A DNA stretch of 64,000 nucleotides from Auricularia sp. M13 (lineage: Eukaryota; Basidiomycota; Agaricomycetes; Auriculariales; Auriculariaceae), in contig CM073195.1 of NCBI GenBank assembly GCA_037042915.1, positions 2,418,001-2,482,000 of the forward strand, in the 5' to 3' direction. The notes beneath the pieces are model-generated. The model was not told where the DNA came from and did no database searches. It saw only the letters and a program-made list of their open reading frames with translations. Positions 7,531 through 61,901 of the stretch are shown piece after piece (positions within the stretch are counted from its first letter, which is position 1; the number at the start of each line of letters is the position of its first letter). Position numbers and translations under genes: made by a program.

Positions 7531-7782
7531 GAGGGATCAAGATGGTCTCTATGCCCCTATATCCCCCCTCCCTATGCTTGCTGTGAACCTTCTTGTCAAC
7601 CCCCTGAATCCACACCTGTGTGCACTTGATCCCTCTTCAACCCTGTTTAGACCTCCCCCCTGCTCGCCCCCTGTTCACCATTTGGATGTGTCTTCTGTGC
7701 ACTCCACAGCGTCTTGGCTCTGTATTTGTAGCCTGCTTACGCTGTCTAAAATTCAAGAATTGCTCTCTCTCTCTCAAGCTCA
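7531..7782 (+). mobile_element. LINE-A 3' tail, complete to the (TC)n end
   Basis: About 250 bp homologous to the tails at 21690-21930 and 51165-51414, from ATGGTCTCTATGCCCC to TCTCTCTCTCTC. It is followed directly by LINE-B endonuclease sequence at 7783, a junction also present at 36712. No LINE-A coding part is attached. Confidence 0.8.
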
Positions 7783-10486: not shown

Positions 10487-11401
10487 CCCAGTGTAGGGAA
10501 CTCCGACTCATCACCACGCGCTTTCTGGGGGTTAGGCCCAAAGATGCCTTCTCTCACCTCCTCCAGAGTGACCTCCCTGTAGGGAATGTCTTCTGGGTGT
10601 GGTGTGGTCAGGTCTGGCCGTCCAGGCCCTCTATGTGAGGAGGGCGCTGGTACAAGGTCTCGCGCAGTGCATCACACTTCTCAGCATGAGTGCGCGCAAA
10701 GGTACCATCTGGGCGACGAATGTCAGGAGAACGGTACCCAGGTGCGACGTCCCTGAGACCACTTGTGCATGTCCCAGATGTCATCCACAGTGGCATCCTC
10801 CACTACCTTGTTCCAGTAGTCACGCTTGGTGCGCTTTACCTGGCGACGATGGTAGTTATGCTCCCTGGCTGCAGTTGCAGTCAGGACTGCATTGGAGCGG
10901 CGCATGCGCCTTGCAAAGTCCTGTGCAGCTCTCTCTGCATCTCGCATCTTCTGCAAGCTCTGGGTGAGTGCAGGAGTCCACCAGGGCTGAGAGTGCTTAG
11001 AGGGTCTCCTCTTGGGCACCTTGGCCTGAGTGGCACCATTGAGAGCGTCATGGAGTGCTGCTGCAGTGCGCTCTAGGAGCTCAGTGTTGTGAGTGTGGTT
11101 GGGAGCACTTTGCAGCTCTGCAAACACTGCTGCATGGCCATCCAGGCGAGAGCGAAACTCTGCCTTGAACTCGGCCTCATCTGCATGCTTGAAGTTGTAG
11201 CTGGCTCCAGAACCAAGGTCCACATCCTCAGCACCCAGGTCAAAGACCCAGGAGACAGTGTGATGGTCAGAGAAGTCATGGACGTCATCTGACACCGCAA
11301 AGTCTTGCAGCAGACCAAGTGCAGCCATTTGGTCATTCTGCCACACCAAGTCCAGAACAGAGGACTGAGAGTGGTTGTCCTTGCGCCAAGTGGCCACAGG
11401 A
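10487..11401 (-). pseudogene. LINE-B copy 1: endonuclease C-terminus and linker
   Basis: From VATWRKDNHSQSSVLDLVW through the FSDHHTVSW motif of AP-type endonucleases to a basic linker (RRPSKHSQPWW, RQVKRTKRDYW) and the start of the RT region. The first part of the endonuclease lies at 14933-14581, beyond an insertion. The frame is interrupted near 10740. Confidence 0.75.
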
Positions 11402-11879: not shown

Positions 11880-12392
11880 GGAGAGAGAGAGAGAAATTCT
11901 TCAATTTTAGACAGCGTGAGCAGGCTACAAATACAGAGCCAAGACGCTGTGGTCTGTACAAAGTACATTCTAATGGGTCAACATGGGGCAGGCAAGGGGG
12001 GTCGTATCAGGGGTGTAGAGGGATCTAGTGCAAACTGGTGTGGATTCTGGGTGTAACAAAGTTGTGAGCGCAGTTTCATAGGGGTATAGGGGCATAGGGG
12101 CATAGAATAAATAAAAATATACAAACATACCATAACTTCATGCGCCTCATCAGCACATGAAGTGACCAGCTCGCCAATAAGCAAGCAGATGTTAGCAAGT
12201 AAGCAGCTGCATGTGGCCCTTTAGGGCCACTGTGGGTGTATCTCTTGAGACACTCAAGAAAAGTATCTTAGGGACTGATAGAGGGTAGAGGGCAGAGTCT
12301 GGATGGGTGGGGATGTAGCCTACAGACAAAAACGCACCGCAACATGGTCAAAGCCATGTGGAGCCACGGCGCAGCTCATGGTCCTCCCAACC
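11880..12392 (-). other. LINE-B 3'-UTR and tail with terminal stem-loop
   Basis: About 510 bp follow the ORF2 stop. The last 50 bp before (TC)n form ACAGCGT...ACGCTGT, a perfect 7-bp stem, with an inner GGCT/AGCC pairing. The same end occurs at 14331-14578, 22216-22326 and 47618-47880, and in LINE-A tails. This is the likely recognition site of the LINE reverse transcriptase (inference). Confidence 0.75.
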
Positions 12393-13872
12393 CTAAGGGT
12401 CCTGCGGCAGTGGCTCACCAGTTTTGGTGAACGCACCCGACGAGTGGATGAATTTGGCCAAGGCAGAGATGCCCTTGCGCGTACTGAGTAGCGCATGCGT
12501 CCCAAGCAAGTCAGGCTTGAAGGAGGCAAAGTGGTGATAGTGCTCGTCATGGCGCTCGCAATCTCTAAGGATGTGATCGCGTGTCTGCAAGTGGTGTCCA
12601 CAAGGGCAAGTCACATCTTCAGTGGGAACATGGCGCTGATAGTACTCGCCCATGAACGCATGTCCAAAGCGGCACTGCATGACCAGTCCATAAAGACGGC
12701 GAGGCAGCTCACCAAAGTAAGGTGGAGGGCGCGCCTTGGGTGGCCCATAGGCTGCCCTGGCATACAAACCCCGAGGAGGTGACTCTGCCCACTCCTCTAT
12801 CCAAGTCTCCATGACACGCTCCTTGGCACGTCTTTTGAGGTGGGACACAGTGGCCCATGAGGGACCTTGCATGCGAGCTGCCTCCTTGGCTAACTCATCT
12901 GCACGCTCATTGCCCCTTATGCCAATGTGGCTGGGGACCCAAGAGATGGTCACCTCATGAGAAGCATCAGCAGCAAGGAAGTCACGAGCATGCTCGCAGA
13001 AAGAAATGGAAAACTGCTGGGCAGAAGCAGGACGCTCCTTGACAATGGCCTCAACAGCTGAAGAGTTGTCAGCAAAGAAGTGAAGGTGGGAGGCCGAGCC
13101 CATGGGCAAGTCCATGTAATGGGCAACATGGTCCATGGCAGCAGAGAGGGCATGCATCTCAGCATCATAGACCTCAGCCTGGGACCCCATAGGGATGCGA
13201 CCACAAGACTGCTCCTGACCCTCCAGGTAGGTCACAAAAGCTGCACCAGTCCTGCGACCAGTTGGAGTGTCTAAAAGGGAACCATCAGTGTAGATTAGCA
13301 GGTTTGCAGAGCTGAGGTCCAGCATCTGCACAAGTCTGACATGTGACTCTGCAGCATCAGCTTTGCTCACACCCTTTTGCACAGGCCTGAGGTGGATGCG
13401 ACCCGGAAAAGCTGCAAGCAGAGAAATGGCCCATGGGGCAATGTGGAAGGGCTCAATGCGCTCATTGCCAGGTGAGGTGAGCTTGGCAAGGTAGCGAAGA
13501 GAGGAGCGAGTTTGACCACGTTTGTGCATCACTGGTGGCTTCTCCATTGGAGACTGGTGCCAGGCAGGGTGCAGGCGCTGCAAGACAGGACTGCAAGGCC
13601 CCAACTTGTGCAGGCGAGCAGCAGCAAGGTCATCGGCCTTGTCTAATACCAAATGTATAGGTGGAATAGCTGCCTCCAACTCAAGAGCATAAATGGGCGA
13701 AGTCTTGAAGACAGCACAGATCATGCGCAGACACAAGTTCTGCACCTGGTGGAGACCACGCACAGTGTTGGCCAGCATGCGCAATCCCATGGCTGCCTTG
13801 CGCGCCTTGGCACAGGCCTTGTCCACATGGGCGCGATAGGTCAACTTGGGGTCAAAGAAGATACCCAGCCAG
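12393..13872 (-). CDS. LINE-B copy 2: ORF2 C-terminus (RT end, RNase H, knuckle-like end)
   Basis: Open from WLGIFFDPKLTYRAH to the stop at 12393. It contains RT thumb, linker, RNase H (IYTDGSLLD, AEMHALSAAM, FFADNSSAVEAI, WVPSHIGIRGNERADE) and, after it, a C-terminal segment with CPCGHHLQTRDHILRDCERH, a cysteine-histidine cluster typical of LINE ORF2 ends. About 100 bp are missing at RGLHQ/VQNLCL relative to copy 3, in frame. The frame stays open leftward into antisense ORF1, but that part is not real. Confidence 0.8.
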
Positions 13873-16498: not shown

Positions 16499-16774
16499 TC
16501 ATGAACTCAAGGTGAGACACCATTGACTAGCACTTGGTGCCAAGGCTCGTCGCGAGACGCCTTGATGAATGAGCCAGAGTCTGGCACGATGGCAGACGCA
16601 ATTGCATCTCCATGTTCAACCAGATCTGCTGAAGTCAGTCCATCGTGTTTGGCAGCAATGCTGTCCCTCTGGGGACTAACTCTCGCTCAGAGGCAGACGC
16701 CGCGGCCAAGGCAGCAGCAACTGCAAGCAGCACTGTGACAAGCCCACCACACCTGCGCCTGACACTGAGTCTGC

Positions 16775-18290
16775 ATGAGAGACACCACTCGCCCCATTCG
16801 TGTCTCCATGACCAATGTGCGACGTCTCAATGACTCGCAGTCTGCACTCTTCACTCCTGGCTCCCTTTATGGGACCCCTCATGCATCTGATATTTATCTG
16901 GTCACTGAACCGTGGTGGCGAGTTGGTGATGAACCAGACGAGCCACACTACTCTGTCAAGGAACCAGCAGGCATGTATCCCATCCTGCCAGTTCAAGTAG
17001 TGCCTGCTCTTGAGAGGCCACGTGTGTTTGCCTATGCGTCTGCAACGCGGCGTGACTTTGAAGTATTTAACCGCTATGACCTTGCCCAAGATCTTGACTT
17101 TCTCATTCTTGAGATTCGTCAAGGGAGGCGTCCAGCGTTCTTACTTGTCCTCATGTACAATGAGGACGCTCCTGAGGGGGCTGAGCGACTTGGCCGCACT
17201 TTTGCGCGCTTCAAGCTCATTGACCTTCCAGACATGCCAATTGCCATTGCCGTGGATGCAAATGAACACCACCATGTGTGGGACTTGTTTGCAGGCAACT
17301 CCTCTCGAGGGGGTGAGCAGATGCTGGAGTGGATGGAGGAGCATGGGTTCTCTGTGCTCAACAGTCCTGATGTGGCCACTTGGCGCAAGGACAACCACTC
17401 TCAGTCCTCTGTTCTGGACTTGGTGTGGCAGAATGACCAAATGGCTGCACTTGGTCTGCTGCAAGACTTTGCGGTGTCAGACGACGTCCATGACTTCTCT
17501 GACCATCACACTGTCTCCTGGGTCTTTGATCTGGGTGCTGAGGATGTGGACCTTGGTTCTGGAGCCAGCTACAACTTCAAGCATGCGGATGAGGCCGAGT
17601 TCAAGGCAGAGTTTCGCTCTCGCCTGGATGGCCATGCAGCAGTGTTTGCCGAGCTGCAAAGTGCTCCCAAGCACACTCGCAACACTGAGCTCTTAGAGCG
17701 CACTGCAGCAGCACTCCATGACGCTCTCAATGGTGCCACTCAGGCCAAGGTGCCCAAGAGGAGACCCTCTAAGCACTCTCAGCCCTGGTGGACTCCTGCA
17801 CTCACCCAGAGCTTGCAGAAGATGCGAGATGCAGAGAGAGCTGCACAGGACTTTGCAAGGCGCATGCGCCGCTCCAATGCAGTCCTGACTGCAACTGCAG
17901 CCAGGGAGCATAACTACCATCGTCGCCAGGTAAAGCGCACCAAGCGTGACTACTGGAACAAGGTAGTGGAGGATGCCACTGTGGATGACATCTGGGACAT
18001 GCACAAGTGGTCTCAGGGACGTCGGGGGTACCGTTCTCCTGACATTCGTCGCCCAGATGGTACCTTTGCGCGCACTCATGCTGAGAAGTGTGATGCACTG
18101 CGCGAGACCTTGTACCAGCGCCCTCCTCACATAGAGGGCCTGGACGAGCCAGACCTGACCACACCACACCCAGAAGACATTCCCTACAGGGAGGTCACTC
18201 TGGAGGAGGTGAGAGAAGGCATCTTTGGGCCTAACCCCCAGAAAGCGCGTGGTGATGAGGGAGTTCCCTACACTGGGTTGCGCTGGGCTT
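16775..18290 (+). pseudogene. LINE-B copy 3: ORF2 endonuclease and linker
   Basis: It starts MRDTTRPIRVSMTNVRRL. The AP-endonuclease signature is complete: VTEPWWR near the N-terminus, DANEHHHVWD, SVLDLVW and FSDHHTVSWVF. A basic linker follows (RRPSKHSQPWW, KVVEDATVDDIWDMHKW) up to GVPYTGLRWAW. A 7-bp loss relative to copy 4 at about 18290 shifts the frame into the RT frame that follows. This is the best-preserved endonuclease in the window. Confidence 0.85.
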
Positions 18291-19721
18291 GGCACAGGAG
18301 GAGATCTATCTTCTCATTGCGCGCTGTGCTCTTTGGGGCTACCACCCTTGCCGCTGGAGACGAGCCATTGCATATGTGCTCAAGAAAGCTGGCAAGACTG
18401 ATTGGTCTAATCCCAGGTCTTACAGGCTGATTACCTTGCTTGTCTGCTTGGGAAAAGTCCTGGAGCGCATTCAGGCAAAGCGCTTGACCTACATGGCATC
18501 TGCCATGGGTCTTGTGCACCCCAACCAATTTGGGGCCATGCCTGCGTCCTCCACTGTGGATGCTGCTCTGTGCTACACTCATGATGTGCAGACTGCTCGT
18601 GACAAGGGTTTCGTGACTAGTTCCCTGACCTTTGACATCAAGGGCTACTTTGACTTTGTCAACCACCAGCGTCTCCTGCTGGTCTTGCGAGAGAAGCGTG
18701 TGCCTCTGCCCATTGTGCAGTGGGTTGCATCCTTCTTGCAGGACAGAGAGGCATCCATCTGCCTGGATGGTAGTAGAGTCAGCAGCTGTAAGCCAGTTGA
18801 GAATGGAGTGCCTCAGGGATCTCCAGTCTCTGGCATACTCTCTGCATTCTACTCCACTGAGCTCATTGAGTTCATGCAGCAGAGGCGAGCTGCCCGCGAG
18901 GCAGAGATGCGCCAGCTCAATCCCACATTTGTTGCACCCACCCTCTTCCTCTATGTGGATGATGGGAGATGCACAGTGCACTCTGACAGCCTGGAGCTGA
19001 ACACTGCTGAGCTGTGCTTCTGCTTCTGCATTATTCGGGAGTGGTTCAACCTGGCAGGTCTTCAGCCTGACCTGGACAAGTGTGAGCTTATGCACCACAC
19101 CTGGCGTTGCAAGGATGGCTCCTTTGCTGACATTGCTGCCAATGATGACTTGGCCATGGCCTACACTGATGCTCAGGGCCAGGTTGCTCGCCTGCGCCCT
19201 CTCCCAGTTGTACGTTGGCTGGGGATCTTCTTTGACCCCAAGTTGACCTATCGCGCCCATGTGGACAAGGCCTGTGCCAAGGCGCGCAAGGCAGCCATGG
19301 GATTGCGCATGCTGGCCAACACTGTGCGTGGTCTCCACCAGGGACACATGCGCAGGCTGTACATCTCCTGCATTCTCCCCATCCTCCTCTATGCTTCACC
19401 AGTGTGGTGGATGCAAAGGGCATGGCAAGCTGAGAAGCTCATGCGTGTGCAGAACTTGTGTCTGCGCATGATCTGTGCTGTCTTCAAGACTTCGCCCATT
19501 TATGCTCTGGAGTTGGAGGCAGCTATTCCACCTATACATTTGGTATTGGACAAGGCCGATGACCTTGCTGCTGCTCGCCTACACAAGTTGGGGCCTCACA
19601 GTCCTGTCTTGCAGCGCCTGCACCCTGCCTGGCACCAGTCTCCAATGGAGAAGCCACCAGTGGTGCACAAGCGTGGTCAAACTCGCTCCTCTCTTCGCTA
19701 CCTTGCCAAGCTCACCTCACC
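18291..19721 (+). pseudogene. LINE-B copy 3: reverse transcriptase
   Basis: It contains YVLKKAGKTDWSNPRSYRLI, FDIKGYFDFVNH, NGVPQGSPVSG and LYVDDG at about 18950-18966, and the thumb up to KPPVVHKRGQTRSSLRYLAK. All RT active-site aspartates are present. The frame ends seven codons into foreign sequence. RNase H is missing. Confidence 0.85.
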
Positions 19722-21131: not shown

Positions 21132-21930
21132 TCGCAGGAGTTGCAGGCTGAGGTGGAGGAGTTTACTGCCCACCAGTTTGCCTGGGCCGCCCCTCCCATG
21201 TGGTTGGGCCCACCTACTCGCATCATCCAGCAGGGCTCTGGCTCTGTGCTACTTTCCTTCACTCGTGAAGATGACTTGCAGTACGTCCTTCGCCATGGTG
21301 TCTTCCTTTTTGGCCACGCTATGCGTGCTCGTCGCTTCCACGACTCTGGTCGTGCTCGCCCCTGCTTTAACTGCTGCAGTCTGGAGCACACTGCTCGTGC
21401 CTGCACCCAGGCCCCTCGCTGTGGTCTGTGTTCTCAGAGTCACTTGACTTCTGAGCACGGCTGCAGTGAGTGCGACTTCTTTGCCGACATCCATGATGGT
21501 CTTGCACACTGTGCACACACTGTCTTGTGCTGCCCCCACTGTGCTGGGTCCCACGCGATGTGCGACTCAGCTTGCCGCGTCTGGACTCGCCGTGCTGGTG
21601 GTCCCAGGAGAACTAGGAGGACATCTGGTGGTGGCCAGGCGGCCACTGCCATGGATGTGACTTGATCTGCTTTTCCACTGAGTGCGTGTTTTGTTTTATG
21701 GTCTCTATGCCCCTATACCCCCCTCCCCTATGCTTGCTGTGAACCTCTTGTCGACCCCCTGAATTCACACCTGTGTGCACTTGATCCCTCTTCAACCCTG
21801 TTTCGACCTCCCCCTTGCTCGCCCCCTGTTCACCATTTGGATGTGTACTCTGTGCACTCCACAGCGTCTTGGCTCTGTATTTGTAGCCTGCTTACGCTGT
21901 CTAAAAATGAAGAATATCTCTCTCTCTCTC
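21132..21930 (+). mobile_element. LINE-A copy, 5'-truncated, with target duplication
   Basis: This is the 3' part of LINE-A: the ORF1 end (21134-21665) and the complete 3' tail to (TC)n. The direct repeat TCTCTAGAGCCGTGT at 21117-21131 and 21931-21945 is its target-site duplication. ORF1 is followed directly by the tail with no ORF2, as in all other LINE-A copies. This is direct evidence for a target-primed insertion of an ORF2-less element. Confidence 0.88.
21134..21665 (+). CDS. LINE-A ORF1 C-terminal part with zinc knuckles
   Basis: An open frame (about 177 codons) ending in TGA at 21663. QELQAEVEEFTAHQFAW is followed by an RNA-binding-like segment (SGSVLLSFTREDDLQYVL), then CFNCCSLEHTARAC, CGLCSQSHLTSEHGC, and CPHCAGSHAMCDSAC. 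The truncation removes the Pro-rich N-terminal half. It is aligned with LINE-B ORF1 at 14930-15665. Confidence 0.8.
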
Positions 21931-33203: not shown

Positions 33204-35213
33204 GGCTCGCATTGTTGCGCACATGAGCAGTGAGCTCAGGGGGGGCACGGACGCTCAGGATGAGACGATCTGGGTGGTGGCGCGCACGACCATTGGTAGG
33301 AGGTGGCTTTGGCACCGCACTGGGACGGGCAGGCACCACAGTGCCTTTGGCAGCTGGCTGAGCAGCACGTGACGCATAGGAGCGACCAGGTGTGCTTGCC
33401 TTTGCAGGAGCAGCTGTAGGGGCAGCTGCTGCTGTTGGGCACTTGAAGGCGCAGAGGCCTGTTGGGCAGTGAGGAAGGCAATGTTGCGCTTGACCTCAGC
33501 CATATCTGAGACAAGGGTGTCAAGGAGTGTGGGCTGTGGGCAGGACAAGTACCCAAAGTGTTGCTCTGCTTCTCCTGCAGCTGCCGAAGAGCACATGACT
33601 CTGGCAAGCTCAGTGACGCGCTCTGCTGTCCACAGGTCTGCCCAGCGCCAGTACCGGTCTTCCTGGTTCCAGACAGCCGCATTGACTGCAGTGGCACGTG
33701 CAATGAGGTGCTGCAGGTCAGACCTGATGTCATTGACTGCCTCCTCAAGTGGTGTGCCGTCTGGCAGACAGCCCAAGTTGGCTGGCACATTCTGTGCCCT
33801 CCAGTCCTGAACTGAGTTCACAGACTGCATGTCCTCGTCACCACAGACTGACATAGTCTCGCCTTGGGGGATTGAGGTGCTAGGGCGAGCATAGGGCAAC
33901 TTTGTTGCAGCAGAAGACAACTTGGTTGCCTGTGGTTCACCTGGGGCAGAACTGCCCCAGTTATGCGCCGATTGAGGCTCTCCAGGAGCTGAGTCGACAC
34001 CCCAGTCATTTCTCACCGAGGGGGCGCGATCTGAGCCGCTGCCATGTGCAGCAACTCGAGGAGCACGTCCAGAAGCGGTGTGAACGAGGCCCTGCATTCT
34101 GGATACTCCCTCAGCCTGTTCTGGTGAGGCCGAACTCGTTTCGACGGTTTTGGGCGCAGCAGGTGAGCTAGTGGCTCGATATGCGGCGCCCTGCTCGAGG
34201 ACGAGCCCATCCACCTTTCCTGACGCCCCCAGCCGGTCATCGATACCAATGCCCGTTGAACGAGCCGGAATTGCGCCCAGGGCATCCTTGGACACCCCAG
34301 AGCGCACAGCAGATGTTGTGAGTGCAGCAGGCTCGTCCCCAGTGTGCAGTGCACTAAGGGGGCGAGGAGCAGACACTGTGGGCCGCATTGAAGCGGTAGG
34401 AGCGTGTTCTGAGCGGTTTGGAGTCAGTACAGCCAGCTGCTGCACACCAGAGTGTGCAGCTCGAGTTGGGGAGGCTGGATGGGACTGCTGGGCTTCTCCT
34501 GCACGTTCCGGCGCTTCCTGGAGGCGGTACCGGTCCGCTCCGGCCGGAGCCGATGGGGCCACGTCACCCTCGCGCAAAAACGAGCCTGGGACGCGCACAG
34601 AGTGCGCTCTGGTGCCAGGAATGGTGTGGAATGCAGGAGGGGATGTAGGAGATGTGTGTGCGCAAAAATCGAGTCCAGAAACGAAGGGGTCGTCCCCAGG
34701 GGCTGCAAAGCAAGCCTCCTGGTTTGTCTCCACCCCAGGATGCGAAGAACAAAAGGAGGAGCGTCTATAACGCTTGGGAACTGGCTGGGGCGCACCTCTG
34801 AGTCTAGGAGGGCTGTCAGACCGCTTCCTAGTGAGCTGTCTGCTCTGCTGCTCGTCTCTGGTGCTCCTACTGCTCCTGGGGGTGAACTGCGCCTTAACGA
34901 GGTCTTTGGCCTTGCCAAGCCACCCCAAACGCGAGGGGGAGTGCACAGGACCGGTATCTAGCTCCATGGAAGCGAGGGAAGCAGAGGGGGAGTGGTGGTG
35001 CGCTCTAGGAGTCCCAGTTTTGTCTGGAACTCGCACCTGCGATTTCTCGCGATCCACCGGCCCAGGAGGGTCGCGGCCGGGCTCGATAGACTCCTGGTGG
35101 GTCCAGGAAGATGCCATGATCGTTAGATCGAAGAGGCGGATGAAGGGGCGCGCTGGAAAAGCGAGAATTGCTCCACTGACTCGGACTTACTGGAAGTCGG
35201 AGTTCAAGAAGCT
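33204..35213 (-). mobile_element. LINE-B copy 5: 5' end and ORF1
   Basis: The 5' leader starts at 35213 (AGCTTCTTGAACTCC) and ORF1 at 35117. The copy stops within ORF1 at 33204 (NNAS) against host sequence. It is the only copy here with an intact 5' end and a long ORF1 N-terminus, and it abuts LINE-B copy 4 in the same orientation. Confidence 0.8.
33255..35117 (-). pseudogene. LINE-B ORF1 (620 codons, C-terminus missing)
   Basis: It starts MASSWTHQESIEPGRDPPGP. The first 330 residues are Ser/Pro/Arg-rich and probably disordered with basic patches (KRSDSPPR, KRYRRSS). Residues about 430-560 are helical, with WNQEDRYWRWADLWTAERV and a coiled segment (LVSDMAEVKRNIAFLT). Comparison with 47034-47616 shows a frame shift near 33420: the alternative frame continues with TNGRARHHPDRLILSVRA. 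Zinc knuckles would follow but lie beyond the truncation. Likely an RNA-binding Gag-like protein. Confidence 0.7.
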
Positions 35214-36712
35214 TTTCTGTGCACCACTGGTGGCTTCTCCATTGGAGACTGGTGCCAGGCAGGGTGCAGGCACTGCAAGACAGGACTGCAAGGCCCCAAC
35301 TTGTGCAGGCGAGCAGCAGTAAGGTCATCGGCCTTGTCTAATACCAAGTGTATAGGTGGAATAGCTGCCTCCAACTCAAGAGCATAAATGGGCGAAGTTT
35401 TGAAGACAGCACAAATCATGCGGATGCCATGTAGATCAAGCGCTTTGCCTGAATACGCTCCAAGACTTCTCCCAAGGAGACAAGCAAGGTAATCAGCCTG
35501 TAAGACCGTGGATTAGGCCAATCAGTCTTGCCAGCTTTCTTGAGCACATATCTCGTCTCCAGCGGCGAGGGTGGTAGCCCCAAAGAGCACAGCGCCCAAT
35601 GAGAAGATAGATCTCCTCCTGTGCCACATCCCAAGCCCAGCGCAACCCAGTGTAGGGAACTCCCTCATCACCACGCGCTTTCTGGGGGTTAGGCCCAAAG
35701 ATGCCTTCTCTCACCTCCTCCAGAGTGACCTCCCTGTAGGTAATGTCTTCTGGGTGTGGTGTGGTCAGGTCTGGCTCGTCCAGGCCCTCTATGTGAGGAG
35801 GGCGCTGGTACAAGGTCTCGCGCAGTGCATCACACTTCTCAGCATGAGTGCGCGCAAAGGTACCATCTGGGCGACGAATGTCAGGAGAACGGTACCCCCG
35901 ACGTCCCTGAGACCACTTGTGCATGTCCCAGATGTCATCCACAGTGGCATCCTCCACTACCTTGTTCCAGTAGTCACGCTTGGTGCGCTTTACCTGGCGA
36001 CGATGGTAGTTATGCTCCCTGGCTGCAGTTGCAGTCAGGACTGCATTGGAGCGGCGCATGCGCCTTGCAAAGTCCTGTGCAGCTCTCTCTGCATCTCGCA
36101 TCTTCTGCAAGCTCTGGGTGAGTGCAGGAGTCCACCAGGGCTGAGAGTGCTTAGAGGGTCTCCTCTTGGGCACCTTGGCCTGAGTGGCACCATTGAGAGC
36201 GTCATGGAGTGCTGCTGCAGTGCGCTCTAGGAGCTCAGTGTTGCGAGTGTGGTTGGGAGCACTTTGCAGCTCTGCAAACACTGCTGCATGGCCATCCAGG
36301 CGAGAGCGAAACTCTGCCTTGAACTCGGCCTCATCTGCATGCTTGAAGTTGTAGCTGGCTCCAGAACCAAGGTCCACATCCTCAGCACCCAGGTCAAAGA
36401 CCCAGGAGACAGTGTGATGGTCAGAGAAGTCATGGACGTCATCTGACACCGCAAAGTCTTGCAGGAGACCAAGTGCAGCCATTTGGTCATTCTGCCACAC
36501 CAAGTCCAGAACAGAGGACTGAGAGTGGTTGTCCTTGCGCCAAGTGGCCACATCAGGACTGTTGAGCACAGAGAACACATGCTCCTCCATCCACTCCAGC
36601 ATCTGCTCACCCCCTCGAGAGGAGTTGGCCGCAAACAAGTCCCACACATGGTGGTGTTCATTTGCATGCATGGCAATGGCAATTGGCATGTCTGGAAGGT
36701 CAATGAGCTTGA
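35214..36712 (-). mobile_element. LINE-B copy 4: ORF2 fragment lacking the RT core
   Basis: It runs from LIDLPDMPIAIAMHANEHHH through the whole later endonuclease, the linker and the start of RT (GLRWAWDVAQEEIYLLIGRC, the undeleted form of the 7-bp difference). It then loses the catalytic core: after GEVLERIQAKRLIYMASA it jumps to MICAVFKTSPIYALELE. It ends at 35214 against LINE-B copy 5. It starts right after a LINE-A tail, a junction shared with 7783. Confidence 0.8.
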
Positions 36713-38957
36713 GAGAGAGAGAGAAATATTCTTCATTTTTAGACAGCGTAAGCAGGCTACAAATACAGAGCCAAGACGCTGGGGAGTGCACAGAAGACAC
36801 ATCCAAATGGTGAACAGGGGGCGAGCAGGGGGGAGGTCTAAACAGGGTTGAAGAGGGATCAAGTGCACACAGGTGTGGATTCAGGGGGTTGACAAGAAGG
36901 TTCACAGCAAGCATAGGGAGGGGGGGTATAGGGGCATAGAGACCATAAAACAAAACACGCACTCAGGGGGAAAGCCAATCAAGTCACATCCATGGCAGTG
37001 GCCACCTGGCTACCACCAGATGTCCTCCTAGTTCTCCTGGGACCACCAGCAAGGCGAGTCCAGATGCGGTAAGCTGAGTCGCATATCGCGTGGGACCCAG
37101 CACAGTGGGGGCAGCGCAAGACAGTATGTGCACAGTGTGCAAGACCATCATGGACGTCAGCGAAAAAGTCGCACTCACTGCAGCCGTGCTCAGAAGTCAA
37201 ATGACTCTGAGAACACAGACCACAGCGAGGGGCCTGGGTGCAGGCACGAGCAGTGTGCTCCAAACTGCAGCAGTTGGAGCAGGGGCGAGGACGACCAGAG
37301 TCGTGGAAGCGACGAGCACGCATAGCGTGGCCAAGGAGGAAGACACCGTGGCGAAGGACGTACTGCAAGTCATCTTCACGAGTGAAGGAAAGTAGCACAG
37401 AGCCAGAGCCCTGCTGGATGATGCGAGTAGGGGGTCCCAACCACATGGGAGGGGCAGCCCAGGCAAACTGGTGGGCAGTAAACTCCTCCACCTCGGCCTG
37501 CAACTCCTGCGGCGTCGGCAGGGGTTGGCCAAGGTCAGGAGGCACAACATTGGAGACAATGGCCTTGAACCAAAGGCTGCCACGAGCAGCACCAGAAAAG
37601 GCGGCCTCCTGGGGCAGGAAGGCAGAGGCAATGAGTGCACTGTGGGGCTCCAAGTCGGCAGCAGTGAGACCTGGGAGCGCAAAGACAACAACATTGCCTG
37701 AGCGAGTCAGGCCAACACCACTCACCCCAAGCCTGGGATGAGGTGCAGCAGGAGGGGAGACGCCAGCGAGGGCGGTGTTGATGGCAGAGCGGGCGGCAGC
37801 AGCGTTCTTGACAGCGAGGCGAACAGAGGCACTGGGCTTGACCATGAGGATCAGGCGGCGAGCGTCATGGCGGGTAAGAGGAGTAGCTGGGGCTGGCAGG
37901 CGGGGCACAGCAGGTGGTGGTGGAGCTGACTTGGCAGCGCGAGCAGCATAGGAGTCCTTGGCAGGACGAGCAGGAGCAGGTGGTGCAGATGAAGTTGCAG
38001 CAGCAGGCACACCTCCAGGGGCGTCCTTAAGCAAGGCTACCATAGCAGAGAGCTTCCCAAGCTCCTCCTGCTGAGCAAGAAGCAGCCTAGTGGCGGAGGA
38101 CAGCACAACAGAGTGGCAGAAGTCCTTGATGATGGAAGCAGCCCGTGGAATACACTCCCTGCAATCAAGGAGCAACTTTAGCATGCCCAGAAGCTCATTG
38201 ACCAGCGTGACAGAGTTCCTGAGGTCACGAGGAGTCAGGGGTACAGAGGCCCAATTAGCAGCAAAGGCAGCAAGGTCAAATCCTTCATAATCATCCTCAG
38301 AGTCTGAGGCCATGTCCTGATCAGAAGCAACTGGCTGAGTGTCCAGGGCACCCCGAGGGGCACCCAGAGCCGAAATATCGACGCCAGAGGAGGAGAAATG
38401 AGCCTGTGGTGGTGCAGGGGCAGGAGGAGGGGGTCCGGAAGTATCCGGAGCGGAGTTTGAAACTGATGAACGCGCAGCCTCCTGAGGCAGCACCTCACCA
38501 GGGCTCAACCAGGCACTCTGGGAGCTAGCCCTTTCGGGTGGGAGGTGCTGGGAGGTGGTGGAGGGAATAGGACCGCTTTTCCTGGACTTTTTAGGCCCAG
38601 AAATGCGCCCAGGAGGTGGTGCAGACCCAGCAGAACCTGCAAGTTGCCCAGGACTAGCCAGGGCATCTACAGGCCGCTTAAGGGGGGCAAGGGAGGGAGG
38701 AGTGGTCCTAGAGGGAGGGCCAGGGCCAGAGGTGGGGCCAGGGGCAGTGGTGGGGGCTGGAGTGGCCAGGGCAGGTTGGGCTGGAGCACCCAAGGACATG
38801 CCCCACTGGGGAGCCATGAGCAGGCTGGAGCCACTCTTTGGAGGGCCAGGGGGACCCCCTGGGCCCCTAGGAGGGCCAGTAGGATGAGATGTAGAGGACA
38901 GAGTGTGCCAGAGGTAGACTGACTCTGACCAGGTGGTGGTAAGAGTCCAAGAAGCGA
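36713..38957 (-). mobile_element. LINE-A copy a1, full length
   Basis: The 5' end is at 38957 (CTTCTTGGACTCTTACC on the minus strand), ORF1 runs to 36979 and the 3' tail ends in (GA)n at 36713-36724. It lies against the C-terminal coding part of the Plavaka transposase. It carries no ORF2. No target duplication is seen because the left flank is LINE-B, not Plavaka. Confidence 0.8.
36979..38957 (-). CDS. LINE-A ORF1 (Gag-like), intact frame
   Basis: About 659 codons of LINE-A sequence remain open, with the likely start MAPQWGMSLGAPAQPAL about 45 codons in. Order: a Pro/Gly/Ala-rich N-terminus (GPPRGPGGPPGPPKSG), a basic GPKKSRKS, an acidic DSEDDYEGFD, a helical part, a conserved middle (DARRLILMVKPSASVRLAV; GVSGVGLTRSGNVVVFALPG), then QELQAEVEEFTAHQFAW and three zinc-knuckle-like clusters ending CPHCAGSHAIC. 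The C-terminal half aligns with LINE-B ORF1. There is no endonuclease or RT. The open frame continues upstream into Plavaka to 39120, but that fusion is accidental. Confidence 0.8.
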
Positions 38958-42815: not shown

Positions 42816-43559
42816 GCGCGGAACTTGAAAGCAGTAATTTGACAATATCTTGGCCAGTTTTTAAGGTTTGATAGGTTTGTGCACACAGACATGTGCGGGT
42901 AGGTGTAAGCTACTGGAATGACCCTCAACAATCATTCTATAATGTCTGAACAGTCTTCTAGGGCAGGATTACTGCTGCGCACGGACCTCGCGCACGTGCG
43001 CACGGTTTTCTCGTGACCCATCTGGGCCATGTACTCCCAATAGCTGGGCAGTTTGCCAGTCAGCCGCGGTGAGCTCAGCGTCTGACTCGATGGGATGGGC
43101 CAGCGTAAGGTGAACGCTGAGCCCTGTCTTGGTGTGGAAGGCACGGTCACAGTGCTCGCAGCAGTAATGCCCCTTAACGAAATTCGTCAGCCGGCGAAGC
43201 ATCCAGACGGTCAGAGGTCGTGGGGGAGAGAGAGAGAGAGAGAGATATTCTTCATTTTTAGACAGCGTAAGCAGGCTACAAATACAGAGCCAAGACGCTG
43301 TGGAGTGCACAGAAGACACATCCAAATGGTGAACAGGGGGCGAGCAGGGGGGAGGTCTAAACAGGGTTGAAGAGGGATCAAGTGCACATAGGTGTGAAGT
43401 CAGGGGGTCGACAAGAAGGTTCACAGCAAGCATAGGGAGGGGGGGTATAGGGGCATAGAGACCATAAAACAAAACACCCGGATATGTTAGAGCTCCAAAA
43501 GTTGGGAGTGGCCTCCCAACTCTCAACTCCCAACTCCTATATAGTAATAGCCGGATATA

Positions 43560-43720
43560 ATATATATAGTGTATTCTGAAACTTTCTTAAGTACATAAAT
43601 TACCCCCAACTCCCAACTCCCAACTCCCAACTCTGAACACCTGAATCACTCTTTTGAATACCATCCCACTGCCCCAACTCCAACCCCCAACCCCCAACCC
43701 CCAACTCCCATCTTCGAGAC
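43560..43720 (+). repeat. CAACTCC heptamer minisatellite
   Basis: CCCAACT-type heptamers repeat in 43601-43640 and again at 43670-43712 (CAACCCC variants), with a related inverted piece at 43500-43540. Low-complexity DNA inside the insert in LINE-A copy a2. Confidence 0.7.
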
Positions 43721-43774
43721 ATAAAGTACAAAAAAACAATTGTGCTCGTATTGCGATCTAGTCTCGAAACAAAC

Positions 43775-43775
<1 letters not shown>

Positions 43776-43812
<37 letters not shown>
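43776..43812 (+). repeat. Poly(A) run of about 36 nt
   Basis: An uninterrupted A run after ACAAACC. It could mark the end of a processed or retrotransposed piece, next to the spliced-looking coding fragment at 43813-44090. Confidence 0.7.
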
Positions 43813-43813
<1 letters not shown>

Positions 43814-44090
43814 AATCTTTTCCACTGTCTACAATCTGCTTAAATGCTTTGTTTTTCTCCTGGAGAGCTTTGGTGGCCTTGTCCAATTTCCAATAGGGAC
43901 GATGCACCTTGACAGGACTTGAAGCTTCAGAAGAGGCAAGCTGATTCAAACGGTGGGCTGAAGTCCAGACAAGTCAGACAAATAATGAAGGATAACATGA
44001 GAATAGACAAACCTTCGAGGCGGTTGAACTCTTGGAAATACCGATGGAAGGTATTCATGTATGTGTCGGGATCTGCTAAGTAATCTGACA
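43813..44090 (-). pseudogene. Fragment of a spliced host gene
   Basis: The minus frame reads LADPDTYMNTFHRYFQEFNR, then an intron of about 55 bp (GTTTGT..CTTCAG), then HRLNQLASSEASS and VHRPYWKLDKATKALQEKNK, up to the poly(A/T) tract. The intron has normal ends, so it did not come from a spliced mRNA. The family is unknown. It is probably captured DNA inside the LINE-A copy. Confidence 0.4.
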
Positions 44091-44282
44091 ACCGGAAACT
44101 CAGCAATTAACACAGAGGAATAGCAGGGCCAGGCTAAACCTTGTCGATAATTGGGGTGGGGGTTGGTGGTGGCCACGGTGCCCTCGGCCAGCGAAGCACC
44201 GTCGGGAACGTGAGACGAGGACAGAGCAGTACCGTGCGGGCCTGCAAAGGCATAAAATCAGTACGGAGCGAGGAGTGCCGAA

Positions 44283-44994
44283 GACGTCGCGAGCACGGAG
44301 TCGTGCTGGCGGCGCCGGCGCTGCGTGGGTGGTGGGGAGAAAGAGCGCGCCGCGCCCGGGCAAGAGCCCGAGCGCGCGGAGAGGACGAGCGCTGCGCCGG
44401 CACCGTCTGCGAGCACGGAGTCGTGCTCGCAGCGCTGGCGCCGTGTGGTGGTGGGGAAAAGAAAAGGAATAAAGTAAGCACGTACATGGAATGTTATTTG
44501 GCACATGAAGCACCGGGGCTTGTCCTGCATTACTCATGAATACTGGTGAGGGGAGGGCAGGGGCGAGCAGTGCGAGCCGTGGGAGGCGGGGAGTTCGCGG
44601 GCAGAACGAACAGGCCAGCGCCGGTGCCTCATGAAGCCGGCGCTGGCTCTTGCTGAACGTCTGCGAAACGGCGCCAGCACCGCTGACGAGCACGGAGTCA
44701 TGTTCGTAAAAAGAAGGGGCAGTGCCCGGGCAAAAGCCCGAGCGTGAGAAGGACGAGTAGCGGGCAGGAGAGCCGCCGCTGGCGCCATGAGCACGCACGG
44801 AATCATGCGCGCGACGTCAGCAGCGGCGGCGGCGATGGAAGGACGGGGACGCACTCGGGCAAGTGCCCGAGCGCGAAGAAAGGCGGCCGTGGCGCAACGA
44901 AGAGCAGCGCCCGGGCAGGAGCCCGAGCGCGACGAGAAGGTGGCCAGCCGCTGCTGGCGCCATGTGCGCGCACGGAGTCGTGCGCGCGGCGTGG
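44283..44994. repeat. GC-rich array of two alternating hairpin modules
   Basis: Module X is a palindrome with a GAGT loop: GAGCACG/CGTGCTC at 44291 and 44411, a weaker copy at 44688, and GCGCGCACG/CGTGCGCGC at 44965-44986. Module Y is CGGGC-4 nt-GCCCG at 44357, 44727, 44854 and 44911. A third piece GCTGGCGCC precedes X. Stem sequences differ between X copies yet still pair, so base pairing seems kept. No coding role is supported in spite of long open frames, which result from high GC content. Confidence 0.6.
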
Positions 44995-46484
44995 CCAAAG
45001 AGGAAGACACCATGGCGAAGGACGTACTGCAAGTCGTCTTCACGAGTGAAGGAAAGTAGCACAGAGCCAGAGCCCTGCTGTATGATGCGAGTAAGGGGGC
45101 CCAACCACATGGGAGGGGCAGCCCAGGCAAACCGGTGGGCAGTAAACTCCTCCACCTCGGCCTGCAACTCCTGCGACGTCGGCAGGGGCTGGCCAAGGTC
45201 AGGAGGCACAACATCAGAGACAACAGCCTTGAACCAAAGTCTGTCACGAGCAGCACCAGAAAAGGCGGCCTCCTGGGGCAGGAAGGCAGAGGCGATGAGA
45301 GCGCTGTGGGGCTCCAAGTCAGCAGCAGTGAGACCTGGAAGCGCAAAGACAACAACGTTGCCTGAGCGAGTCAGGCCAACACCACTCACCCCAAGCCTGG
45401 GATGAGGTGCAGCAGGAGGGGAGACACCAGCGAGGGCGGTGTTGATGGCAGAGCGGGCGGCGGCGGCGTTCTTGACAGCGAGGCGAACAGCAGCACTGGG
45501 CTTGACCATGAGGATCAGGCGGCGAGCGTCGTGGCGAGTAAGAGGAGTAGCTGAGGCTGGCACGCGGGGCACAGCGGGTGGTGGTGGAGCTGAATTGGCA
45601 GCGCGAGCAGCGTAGGAGTCCTTGGCAGGACGAGCAGAAGCAGCAGCAGCAGGCTGGGCAGCTGGGGCAGACGAGGTTGCAGCAGCAGAAGCACACCCAA
45701 GGGTGCACTGAAGGGAGGCTACCATGGCAGAGAGCTTCTTAAGCTCCTCCTGCTGTGCAAGAAGCAGCTGGGAGGTGGAGGATTGCACCACAGAGCGGCA
45801 AAAGTCCTCAACTGCAGCTCCAGCAGCACTAGGAAAGCGGTCCTTGCGATCATAGATCACCTTGACCATGTCCAGGCAGTAGGTCAGGAAGGAAATAATG
45901 TCCCTAGCCTTCTTGGAGGTCACAGGCTTGGCATCCAGTTCAGCAGCAAGTGTATCAGGGTCCAGAGCATCAGAGTCATTCTGTGGCTCCATATCCTGGT
46001 CCTGGTCAGGAGCAACTGGCTGAGAGGGCAGAGCATCCCTAGGGGCACCCACAGCCGGAGTATCAGGCAGATTGAAGCTGAAGGTAGCCTGCCAGGCAGC
46101 AGGGGCAGGAGGAGAGGGTCCGGAAGTATCCGGAGCGGAGTTTGAAACCGATGAACGCGCGGCCTCCTGAGGCAGCAGCTCACCAGGGCTCAACCAGGCA
46201 CTCTGGGAGCTAGCCCTTTCGGGTGGGAGGTGCTGGGAGGTGGTGGAGGGAATAGGACTGCTTTTCCTGGACTTTTTAGGCCCAGAAATGCGCCCAGGAG
46301 GTGGTGCAGACCCAGCAGAACCTGCAAGTTGCCCAGGACTAGCCAGGGCATCTACAGGCCGCTTAAGGGGGGCAAGGGAGGGGGGAGTGGTCCTAGAGGG
46401 AGGGCCAAGGCCAGAGGTGGGGCCAGGGGCAGTGGTGGGGGCTGGAGTGGCCAAGGCAGTGGAGCACCCAAGGGCAAGCCCCAC
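44995..46484 (-). pseudogene. LINE-A ORF1 without zinc knuckles
   Basis: It matches the ORF1 at 36979-38957 from GPTSGLGPPSRTT to RHGVFLFGHA, with a different central acidic part (DQDQDMEPQNDSDALDPDTL instead of DSEDDYEGFD). The variable middle shows at least two LINE-A subfamilies. After FGHA the frame runs into the hairpin-rich insert and has no meaning there. Confidence 0.75.
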
Positions 46485-46652
46485 TGGGGAGCCATGAGCA
46501 GACTGGAGCCACTCTTTGGAGGGCCAGGGGGACCCCCTGGGCCCCTAAGAGGGCCAGTAGGACGAGAGGTAGAGGACAGAGTGTGCCAGAGGTAGACTGA
46601 CTCTGACCAGGTGGTGGTAAGAGTCCAAGAAGCTTTTCAGAGGTCGTGGGGG

Positions 46653-49166: not shown

Positions 49167-51414
49167 CAAAGCTTCTTGGACTCTTACCACCACCTGGTCA
49201 GAGTCAGTCTACCTCTGGCACACTCTGTCCTCTACATCTCATCCTACTGGCCCTCCTAGGGGCCCAGGGGGTCCCCCTGGCCCTCCAAAGAGTGGCTCCA
49301 GCCTGCTCATGGCTCCCCAGTGGGGCATGTCCTTGGGTGCTCCAGCCCAACCTGCCCTGGCCACTCCAGCCCCCACCACTGCCCCTGGCCCCACCTCTGG
49401 CCCTGGCCCTCCCTCTAGGACCACTCCTCCCTCCCTTGCCCCCCTTAAGCGGCCTGTAGATGCCCTGGCTAGTCCTGGGCAACTTGCAGGTTCTGCTGGG
49501 TCTGCACCACCTCCTGGGCGCATTTCTGGGCCTAAAAAGTCCAGGAAAAGCGGTCCTATTCCCTCCACCACCTCCCAGCACCTCCCACCCGAAAGGGCTA
49601 GCTCCCAGAGTGCCTGGTTGAGCCCTGGTGAGGTGCTGCCTCAGGAGGCTGCGCGTTCATCAGTTTCAAACTCCGCTCTGGATACTTCCGGACCCCCTCC
49701 TCCTGCCCCTGCACCACCACAGGCTCATTTCTCCTCCTCTGGCGTCGATATTTCGGCTCTGGGTGCCCCTCGGGGTGCCCTGGACACTCAGCCAGTTGCT
49801 TCTGATCAGGACATGGCCTCAGACTCTGAGGATGATTATGAAGGATTTGACCTTGCTGCCTTTGCTGCTAATTGGGCCTCTGCACCCCTGACTCCTCGTG
49901 ACCTCAGGAACTCTGTCACGCTGGTCAATGAGCTTCTGGGCATGCTAAAGTTGCTCCTTGATTGCAGGGAGTGTATTCCACGGGCTGCTTCCATCATCAA
50001 GGACTTCTGCCACTCTGTTGTGCTGTCCTCCACCACTAGGCTGCTTCTTGCTTAGCAGGAGGAGCTTGGGAAGCTCTCTGCTATGGTAGCCTTGCTTAAG
50101 GACGCCCCTGGAGGTGTGCCTGCTGCTGCAACTTCATCTGCACCACCTGCTCCTGCTCGTCCTGCCAAGGACTCCTATGCTGCTCGCGCTGCCAAGTCAG
50201 CTCCACCACCACCTGCTGTGCCCCGCGTGCCAGCCCCAGCTACCCCTCTTGCCTGCCACGACGCTCGCCGCCTGATCCTCATGGTCAAGCCCAGTGCCTC
50301 TGTTCGCCTCGCTGTCAAGAACGCTGCTGCCGCTCGCTCTGCCATCAACACCACACTCACCAGCGTCTCCCCTCCTGCTGCACCTCATCCCAGGCTTGGG
50401 GTGAGTGGTGTTGGCCTGACTCGCTCAGGCAACGTTGTTGTCTTTGCGCTTCCAGGTCTCACTGCTGCCGACTTGGAGCCCCACAGCGCTCTCATCGCCT
50501 CTGCCTTCCTGCCCCAGGAGGCCGCCTTTTCTGGTGCTGCTCGTGACAGCCTTTGGTTCAAGGCCGTTGTCTCCAATGTTGTGCCTCCTGACCTTGGCCA
50601 ACCCCTGCCGACGTCGCAGGAGTTGCAGGCCGAGGTGGAGGAGTTTACTGCCCACCAGTTTGCCTGGGCTGCCCCTCCCATGTGGTTGGGACCCCCTACT
50701 CGCATCATCCAGCAGGGCTCTGGCTCTGTGCTACTTTCCTTCACTCGTGAAGACGACTTGCAGTACGTCCTTCGCCATGGTGTCTTCCTCCTTGGCCACG
50801 CTATGCGTGCTCGTCGCTTCCACGACTCTGGTCGTGCTAGCCCCTGCTTTAACTGCTGCAGTCTGGAGCACACTGCTTGTGCCTGCACCCAGGCCCCTCG
50901 CTGTGGTCTGTGTTCTCAGAGTCATTTGACTTCTGAGCACGGCTGCAGTGAGTGCGACTTTTTCGCTGACGTCCATGATGGTCTTGCACACTGTGCACAT
51001 ACTGTCTTGCGCTGCCCCCACTGTGCTGGGTCCCACGCGATGTGCGACTCAGCTTTCCGCGTCTGGACTCGCCATGCTGGTGGTCCCAGGAGAACTACGA
51101 GGACATCTGGTGGTGGTCAGATGGCCACTGCCATGGATGTGACTTGATTTGCTTTTCCCCCTGAGTGCATGTTTTGTTTTATGGTCTCTATGCCCCTATA
51201 CCCCCCCTCCCCTATGCTTGCTGTGAACCTCTTGTAGACCCCCTGAATTCACACCTGTGTGCACTTGATCCCTCTTCAACCCTGTTTAGACCTTCCCCCT
51301 GCTCGCCCCCTATTCACCATTTGGATGTGTCTTCTGTGCACTCCACAGCGTCTTGGCTCTGTATTTGTGGCCTGCTTACGCTGTCTAAAAATGAAGAATA
51401 TCTCTCTCTCTCTC
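49167..51414 (+). mobile_element. LINE-A copy a3, full length
   Basis: The 5' end AGCTTCTTGGACTCTTACC is at 49168, ORF1 runs to 51147 and the 3' tail to (TC)n at about 51414. The left flank is LINE-B RNase H (minus) and the right flank LINE-B ORF1 (plus), so flanks do not match and rearrangement followed insertion. No ORF2 lies between the ORF1 stop and the tail. Confidence 0.85.
49213..51147 (+). pseudogene. LINE-A ORF1 with one premature stop
   Basis: Same domain order as 36979-38957: Pro/Gly-rich N-terminus, GPKKSRKSGP, DSEDDYEGFDL, conserved middle, QELQAEVEEFTAHQFAW and three zinc knuckles. A TAG at 50053-50055 replaces a glutamine codon (CAG in the other copies); apart from it the frame is open. 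It is otherwise almost identical to copy a1, so this copy is young. Confidence 0.8.
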
Positions 51415-52365: not shown

Positions 52366-52412
52366 ACACATATATATATATACATGTGTGTGTGTGTGTG
52401 TGCGCGCATGTG
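52366..52412 (+). repeat. TA/TG microsatellite upstream of the MYND gene
   Basis: Alternating (TA)n then (TG)n then (GC)-rich purine-pyrimidine repeats at 52368-52412, able to form Z-DNA. The rest of 52101-52470 shows no gene and presumably holds the promoter. Confidence 0.65.
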
Positions 52413-61376: not shown

Positions 61377-61901
61377 CTTCAGAGTCATCCTCGGAGTCAG
61401 AGTCCATGTCCTGATCAGAAGCAACTGGCTCAGTGTCTAGGGCACCCCTAGGGGCACCCAGAGCCAAAGTATCGAGGCCAGAGGAGGAGAAATGAGCCTG
61501 TGGTGGTGCAGGGGCAGGAGGAGGGGGTCCGGAAGTATCCGGAGCAGAGTGTGAAACCAATGAACGTGCAGCCTCCTGAGGCAGCACCTCACCAGGGCTC
61601 AACCAGGCACTCTAAGAGCTAGCCCTTTTGCGTGGGAGGTGCTGGGAGGTGGTAGAGGGAATAGGACTGCTTTTCCTGGACTTTTTAGGCCCAGAAATGC
61701 GCCCAGGAGGTAGTGCAGACCCAGCAGAACCTGCAAGTTGCCCAGGACTAGCCAGGGCATCTACAGGCCGCTTAAGGGGGGCAAGAGAGGGGGGAGTGGT
61801 CCTAGAGGGAGGGCCAGAGCCAGAGGTGGGGCCAGGGGCAGTGGTGGGGGCTGGAGTGGCCAGGGCAGGTTGGGCTGGAGCATCCAAGGGCAAGCCCCAC
61901 T
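61377..61901 (-). mobile_element. LINE-A ORF1 N-terminal fragment a4
   Basis: It matches ORF1 from APAQPALATPAPTTAPG through GPKKSRKSSP and LPQEAARS to DSDSEDDSEE, on the minus strand, with a TAG at about 61613. It is cut at 61902 by an LTR-type element and at 61377 by the scrap described above. Confidence 0.78.

What the first reader, a model, noticed from the sequence alone, without database searches (positions are those of the whole stretch)
49167..51414. LINE-A: a Gag-only, ORF2-less non-LTR family that seems to use LINE-B's machinery
Five LINE-A pieces in this window (21132-21930, 36713-38957, 43227-46636, 49167-51414, 61377-61901) encode an ORF1-type protein with zinc knuckles; in the four that reach the end of ORF1's side of the element, no endonuclease or RT is present, and where the end of ORF1 is kept the stop is followed within about 20-40 bp by the 3' tail. 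Two have 15-16 bp target duplications, so they did move by target-primed insertion. LINE-A and LINE-B share the 5' start AGCTTCTTG, a homologous ORF1 C-terminus and a homologous 3' tail. This resembles the Drosophila HeT-A element, which has Gag only. A fungal Gag-only family paired with an autonomous LINE is new to me.
Basis: partly seen in the sequence, partly recalled or inferred. Interest (0 to 1): 0.82.

Follow-up and report, generated by a model that had tools for sequence, protein, structure and literature searches.

The report
ORF1-only LINE riding its partner
A short jumping gene in a probably fungal genome makes only an RNA-binding-type protein and appears to be copied by the machinery of a longer neighbour whose RNA tail hairpin it shares; similar pairs are known from fly telomeres and mammals.

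Summary
LINE-A is a 2.25-kb retrotransposon. Fourteen uninterrupted full-length copies encode only ORF1 (open in 8 of 14) and carry no ORF2. Target duplications of 12-16 bp flank 10 of 17 tested copies (0 of 272 mismatched flank pairs). LINE-B is a 7.55-kb relative with ORF1 and an endonuclease/RT/RNase H ORF2, open in four copies. The two are far diverged (53% nucleotide identity in the shared ORF1 end, 61% in the 3' UTR), yet in the last 47 bases before the CT tail their majority letters agree at every position and fold into a hairpin, the kind of tag that stringent LINE enzymes read. Three of 29 LINE-A bodies carry LINE-B's terminal letters, and one A-B fusion exists. A LINE-A form without the ORF1 C-terminus moved at least once with a 14-bp duplication. 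The ORF1 C-terminal half is under purifying selection (dN/dS 0.27). 93 of 94 hairpin sites lie in 15 clusters spanning 1.1% of the genome. Best reading: LINE-A supplies its own ORF1 protein and borrows LINE-B's ORF2. HAL1 and HeT-A are known ORF1-only LINEs, so this is a new variant. A fungal host is probable, not proven.

The parts
49169..51414 (+). LINE-A copy (subfamily A1), full length; ORF1 interrupted by TAG at codon 249; no TSD found
36713..38955 (-). LINE-A copy (A1), full length, ORF1 open (658 codons, 612 from the first Met); no TSD found
43232..46634 (-). LINE-A copy (A2), 5' and 3' ends present, interrupted at 43478-44988; 16-bp TSD
21132..21930 (+). LINE-A 5'-truncated copy with 15-bp TSD
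61379..61901 (-). LINE-A internal fragment (positions 151-673 of A1)
7389..7541 (-). LINE-A 3' fragment with LINE-B-type terminus (TTCAAGAA)
7542..7775 (+). LINE-A 3' fragment with LINE-B-type terminus, head to head with the previous one
51345..51390 (+). shared 3' hairpin block of LINE-A/LINE-B in the title copy (C3:2469345-2469390, 1 mismatch to the pattern)
16637..19721 (+). LINE-B piece, end of ORF1 into ORF2 (endonuclease domain matched in ORF 16775-18430)
11887..13745 (-). LINE-B 3' part: RNase H, 3' UTR and hairpin; 16-bp TSD found for 11887-13872
9073..11398 (-). LINE-B piece with RT domain
33204..35212 (-). LINE-B 5' part (positions 1-2022, ORF1)
35420..36712 (-). LINE-B endonuclease region that abuts the 3' end of the 36713 LINE-A copy

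Best explanation
LINE-A is a non-autonomous, ORF1-only non-LTR retrotransposon family that is copied by the ORF2 protein (endonuclease, RT, RNase H) of the related autonomous family LINE-B. Its RNA ends in the same hairpin and CT tail as LINE-B RNA, so LINE-B ORF2p binds it and reverse-transcribes it at nicked target DNA. LINE-A supplies its own ORF1p, probably acting on its own RNA in cis, which is why that protein stays under selection. Shown here: anatomy, copy set, absence of ORF2 in the copies examined, TSDs, hairpin identity, selection on ORF1, A/B mosaics. Inferred: that LINE-B ORF2p is the enzyme, that it reads the hairpin, and what ORF1p does.
For: 14 uninterrupted full-length copies without ORF2; TSD of 12-16 bp in 10 of 17 copies versus 0 of 272 mismatched flank pairs reaching 9 bp. 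LINE-B has four ORF2s open over all 1344 residues, with Exo_endo_phos_2, RVT_1 and RNase_H. A-B identity: ORF1 C-terminus 53% nt with 39% at third positions, 3' UTR 61%, last block 99%; there 47 of 47 majority columns agree and 42 are invariant, versus 145 of 229 majority columns in the rest of the 3' UTR; longest run 48, 0 of 100000 shuffles. Both tails fold to the same hairpin. The block occurs 94 times, 0 in the reversed control: 34 sites in LINE-A matches, 45 in LINE-B matches, 15 in neither list, which proved to be LINE-B-type tails. One other LINE family of the genome (two stretches) shares nothing with A or B and ends in poly-A. 3 of 29 A-bodied 3' ends carry the B terminus; of 40 B-bodied ends 38 are B-type, 1 is mixed, 1 is deleted. 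A form lacking positions 1296-1914 (ORF1 C-terminus) occurs twice, once with a perfect 14-bp TSD. ORF1 C-terminal dN/dS 0.265 (bootstrap 0.195-0.370) in all 14 copies; 0.21 in three LINE-B ORF1s.
Against: No biochemical or expression evidence. 7 of 17 tested copies, both full-length window copies among them, show no TSD. The B-type termini rest on two diagnostic bases, two of the three cases adjoin and may be one event, and gene conversion between nested copies is possible; 24 of 94 sites were not held as letters. The A/B fusion may be a DNA-level deletion: its 3' part is interrupted and no TSD could be read. The two deletion copies lie about 3 kb apart on C2, and the second has no TSD, so one transposition at most is shown. 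No disabling ORF1 lesion is shared among the 14 full-length copies, which fits cis preference and shows that supply of ORF1 in trans is not the rule. The ORF1 protein search scored 67 of 100 candidates, so an unscored RT-bearing relative cannot be ruled out. The hairpin z-scores (-2.3, -2.1; 2 and 7 of 200 shuffles fold as well) are modest.
Confidence: 0.84

Rival explanations
1. LINE-A copies are merely internal deletions of a LINE with its own ORF2, made one by one, and not a self-renewing family.
For: The nested, rearranged clusters do produce deletions, such as 1296-1914.
Against: 14 copies share the same ORF1 stop region, 3' UTR and ends; no parent with ORF2 was found; TSDs show that the 2.25-kb form itself inserted.
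Confidence: 0.04
2. LINE-A is mobilised by some other LINE of the genome, not LINE-B.
For: The genome holds other RT families, of which only one was compared.
Against: That one (L055, L056) has a poly-A end and no similarity to A/B; every classified carrier of the hairpin is A or B; A and B share clusters and mosaics.
Confidence: 0.08
3. ORF1 in LINE-A is a passenger reading frame and LINE-A behaves as a long SINE; openness reflects youth.
For: N-terminal part and cassette have dN/dS of 0.68 and 0.71; a copy without the ORF1 C-terminus moved.
Against: C-terminal dN/dS 0.265 (0.195-0.370), 0.24 among the six broken copies alone, close to LINE-B's ORF1; the Cys/His pattern is conserved with LINE-B.
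Confidence: 0.08
4. The identical 3' block is kept by gene conversion or template switching from LINE-B and not by selection for enzyme recognition.
For: A bodies with B termini exist; LINE-A subfamilies appear to recombine.
Against: Variation of the block within each family is low: 1.0% versus 3.8% in the rest of the 3' UTR for A, 0.4% versus 2.8% for B, which fits selection. Template switching would itself imply a shared enzyme.
Confidence: 0.15

Closest known systems
HAL1 (half-L1) of mammals
   Same: Non-autonomous LINE derivative that encodes only ORF1p, arisen several times beside an autonomous partner (passages of PMC5753468 seen; Bao and Jurka 2010 seen only in its reference list, not held)
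   Different: Derives from L1; here the partner is an RNase-H-bearing LINE with a CT tail and a shared 3' hairpin, and A and B ORF1s are only about 43% identical in their shared part
HeT-A with TART/TAHRE of Drosophila
   Same: Gag-only LINE lacking pol, thought to rely on a partner's pol; gag conserved; confined to one chromosomal niche (passages of PMC5537684 seen)
   Different: HeT-A attaches to chromosome ends in head-to-tail arrays; LINE-A lies in internal clusters, in both orientations, often with TSDs, and has a short 3' UTR
LINE/SINE pairs and LINEs of the stringent type (UnaL2, ZfL2-1/-2)
   Same: ORF2 protein recognises a 3' hairpin of its cognate RNA (abstract and outline of PMC4176376 seen)
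   Different: The non-autonomous partner here is protein-coding, not a SINE
LINE ORF1 copies and the EKA family of Blumeria graminis
   Same: Fungal LINE-ORF1 sequences in many copies apart from ORF2: of 34 full-length ORF1-type fragments searched 3 kb downstream, one had an ORF2 (passages of PMC4641428 seen). An ORF1-only fungal LINE may therefore already lie in those data
   Different: That paper reads truncated ORF1s, lacking the cysteine-rich domain, as host effectors; in the passages seen it describes no shared 3' hairpin, TSD set or helper element

Membership tests
ORF1-only non-autonomous LINE (HAL1-like kind) | intact ORF1, no ORF2 in full-length copies | tested here: met
   14 of 14 uninterrupted full-length copies lack ORF2; ORF1 open in 8 of 14
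ORF1-only non-autonomous LINE (HAL1-like kind) | insertion by target-primed reverse transcription (TSD, 3' tail, 5' truncation) | tested here: met
   10 of 17 with TSD; truncated copies L016 and window 21132 have TSDs
HAL1 proper | derived from L1 by loss of ORF2 | tested here: inconclusive
   its only relatives found are LINE-B, whose ORF2 carries RNase H and whose tail is CT, not poly-A; LINE-B was not placed by a tree
HeT-A | gag-only | tested here: met
HeT-A | head-to-tail arrays at chromosome ends | tested here: not met
   clusters inside contigs, both orientations; TSDs in 10 of 17
HeT-A | very long 3' UTR with promoter (recalled) | tested here: not met
   3' UTR 269 nt; promoter activity not tested
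stringent-type LINE partner | 3' hairpin shared with an autonomous LINE | tested here: met
stringent-type LINE partner | ORF2p binds that hairpin | not testable with these tools
   needs a binding assay
SINE | non-coding | tested here: not met
   ORF1 of 607-619 aa in five copies, C-terminal half under selection
SINE | pol III-type head (tRNA, 5S, 7SL) | not tested
   no search was made

The most novel reading that the evidence does not exclude
LINE-A and LINE-B form a two-part, centromere-dwelling system in which LINE-A's Gag protein carries both RNAs to the clusters (as HeT-A Gag does for TART at fly telomeres), with two exchangeable helical ORF1 cassettes as alternative versions, so that LINE-A is a working partner and not a pure parasite.
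Probability: 0.15. Interest if true: 0.88.

Novelty: new variant of a known kind. Interest (0 to 1): 0.62.

Why it matters
Few Gag-only LINEs are known to keep their protein under selection (HeT-A is one). A compact pair in a small genome, with the putative recognition hairpin preserved letter for letter while the rest has diverged, would let one ask directly what ORF1p adds when ORF2p comes from elsewhere, how strict RNA recognition is, and whether a Gag protein can steer elements to centromere-like sites. Restriction to one or two clusters per contig also gives a handle on how such regions are built.

Tried and rejected
Green alga (Zepp-type centromeric LINEs) considered because of the one-cluster-per-contig placement (listing only): rejected as far as testable, no PF00504 match. 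Identification by a recalled 5.8S motif failed. Pfam scans of seven ORFs of one arm region and ten window ORFs and an ORF list of another arm region did not settle the taxon. AlphaFold2 of LINE-A ORF1 was too poor to use (mean pLDDT 40, pTM 0.24); it only hints at helices at residues 182-263 and strands and helices from 321 on, so no fold search was run. Pfam finds no domain in ORF1 of A or B at E up to 1 (two A, one B); the zinc-knuckle motifs were read by eye. Splicing as origin of the 1296-1914 deletion was considered and rejected because the joined sequence keeps GTCCCAG. Paper searches: ORF1-only or gag-only LINEs in fungi, HeT-A with ORF1, centromeric LINEs in basidiomycetes, HAL1, mildew ORF1, hairpins, template switching. 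Listings only, apart from the papers cited; none of the listings showed this system, but most subscription papers are not held, so absence from print is not shown.

Full report
Setting. The window is C3:2418001-2482000 of a 52.1-Mb, 14-contig genome. It is a nest of two related non-LTR elements, LINE-A and LINE-B, inserted into each other.

LINE-A. The title unit found 53 matches, a lower bound (105 candidates, 40 scored). I fetched 20 regions. Fourteen copies are uninterrupted and at least 2,230 bp long. Thirteen begin at or within a base or two of AGCTTC (the fourteenth, L013, lacks about the first 10 bases); they run through ORF1 and end after a 3' UTR of about 270 nt in a CT tail. None has an ORF2. 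ORF1 is free of frameshift and stop in 8 of 14, two of these with small in-frame deletions; the open frames are 642-666 codons, and five that I translated give 607-619 aa from the first Met (coordinates). The other six carry lesions, none of them shared. The title copy has a TAG at codon 249. For TSDs I tested 17 copies (14 full-length, 3 truncated); two interrupted copies were left out and two deletion copies were tested apart. Ten of 17 have an exact repeat of 12-16 bp; of 272 mismatched flank pairs none exceeds 7 bp.

Does any LINE-A carry ORF2? The 5' end query had 31 matches, all candidates scored, 24 from base 1. Of these 24, 21 are held as letters: 13 of the 14 full-length copies, 4 interrupted ones (two in L007, one in L018, window 43232-46634), 2 with the same deletion (L020) and the 2 C6 copies; 3 are short matches (134-251 bp) not held. 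The C6 pair is a fusion: A2 positions 1-1183 (95% identical) joined to LINE-B from position 2618 (98%), with the start of LINE-B's ORF2 behind it, present twice in an inverted repeat. It is an A/B recombinant and not a LINE-A ORF2. ORF1 as protein query finds only A and B (67 of 100 candidates scored).

LINE-B. Full length is about 7.55 kb: ORF1 of 958-973 aa from Met in three copies (coordinates), ORF2 of 1344 aa with endonuclease, RT and RNase H. Four ORF2s are open over all 1344 residues (35 of 260 candidates scored), 98.2-98.6% identical, dN/dS 0.09. Seventeen 5' ends were found within 3 mismatches. I did not place LINE-B in a clade.

The shared 3' end. The comparison used 17 A tails and 10 B tails; A copies without a CT end (L007, L019, L020) and other B copies were left out. 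The shared part of ORF1 (three A, three B) is 53% identical at nucleotide level and 39% at third positions, and the 3' UTR 61% with gaps counted, while the last 47 columns before the tail are 99% identical. All 47 majority letters agree, 42 columns are invariant, and none of 100,000 shuffles gave so long a run. The block folds as ACAGCGT...GGCT...AGCC...ACGCTGT in both families, with modest z-scores of -2.3 and -2.1. It occurs 94 times with up to 3 mismatches, 0 in the reversed control. Of the 94, 34 lie in LINE-A matches, 45 in LINE-B matches, and 15 in neither. Of these 15, window 22221-22328 is LINE-B; 13 of the 14 fetched align to LINE-B tails, and the last (L052) is cut to 67 bp but has B-type letters. 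Two stretches of a dispersed LINE used as control share nothing with A or B and end in poly-A (one of them shown). ORF2 recognition of a cognate 3' hairpin is established for stringent LINEs (abstract of PMC4176376).

Mosaics. Of 70 hairpin sites held as letters (24 of 94 were not), 29 have A bodies, 40 B bodies, 1 undetermined. Three A bodies end in the B-type terminus (C12:207395, and window 7389-7541 and 7542-7775). Of the B bodies 38 end B-type, one (L031) has a mixed TTG, one (L047) a deletion. The two window cases adjoin and may be one event. Switching from LINE-B RNA to LINE-A RNA inside the shared hairpin would leave such copies, but gene conversion is not excluded.

Recombination within LINE-A. 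Subfamilies A1 and A2 are about as alike to each other as within themselves (91-98%) over most of their length, but 63-66% identical at the core of a central stretch, alignment columns about 450-1000. In trees A1 and A2 split with support 1.0 in that stretch and are mixed in the C-terminal and 3' parts; most mixing nodes are weak (the best, L003 with L015, 0.91), and in the 5' part the two still tend to separate with weak support. So two versions of a cassette, predicted helical at low confidence, appear to be exchanged against a common backbone.

Selection. In all 14 copies dN/dS is 0.68 for codons 1-125, 0.71 for the cassette, and 0.265 (bootstrap 0.195-0.370) for codons 271-612, which hold the Cys/His motifs; 0.29 among the eight intact and 0.24 among the six broken copies. 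The C-terminus of three LINE-B ORF1s gives 0.21. The protein is therefore under selection in the lineages that spawn copies. Against full dependence on it in cis: a LINE-A form lacking positions 1296-1914 is present twice, about 3 kb apart on C2, with unlike 5' flanks, one copy with a perfect 14-bp TSD and the other with none.

Placement. Grouping sites less than 50 kb apart, 93 of the 94 hairpin sites lie in 15 clusters on contigs C1-C12, one each except two on C1, C2 and C3; the spans add to 566 kb, 1.1% of the genome. One LINE-A fragment (C3:505833) lies outside. This is centromere-like, but no centromere mark was tested.

Mechanism and novelty. The best reading is mobilisation of LINE-A RNA by LINE-B ORF2p through the shared hairpin, with LINE-A providing its own ORF1p. 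HAL1 (passages of PMC5753468) and HeT-A (passages of PMC5537684) are precedents, so the kind is known. The variant lies in the letter-perfect shared hairpin, the exchangeable ORF1 cassettes and the cluster restriction. I saw no report of such a fungal pair in the listings, within the limits of the held library, but the Blumeria paper reports many LINE ORF1 copies without ORF2. Confidence in the best explanation was lowered by 0.01 on rechecking, because the deletion derivative proves at most one transposition.

Noticed in passing
window 7389-7775: Two LINE-A 3' fragments lie head to head with both tails outward and both with LINE-B-type termini; looks like reverse transcription primed from both sides of one break.
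   Followed up: partly
window 7774-7859 and 36627-36712: LINE-A ends with different termini abut the same position (about 3450) of LINE-B, which suggests a reused insertion site or conversion.
   Followed up: no
L032 and L033 (C6:1482500-1497500): Inverted repeat holding an A2/LINE-B fusion on both arms.
   Followed up: partly
genome contigs C1, C2, C3: Each carries two LINE-A/B clusters, C4-C12 one; may reflect chromosome fusion, a lost centromere or assembly joins.
   Followed up: no
window 43478-44988: About 1.5 kb unrelated to A or B sits inside the 43232-46634 LINE-A copy, in place of A2 positions 1654-2019; three ORF stretches match no Pfam family.
   Followed up: partly
window 5530-6391, 57043-57782, 60255-61100: A separate repeat family of 0.7-0.9 kb at 81-88% identity, unidentified.
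   Followed up: no
window 3558-4454 and 52030-53880: DUF6589 protein (E 3.8e-33) and a MYND-finger protein (E 4e-06).
   Followed up: no
L055 (C1:3442500-3447500), L056 (C8:1453900-1458900) and other places: A LINE family with long single ORFs (about 1820 aa) and a poly-A end, spread over many contigs outside the LINE-A/B clusters.
   Followed up: partly
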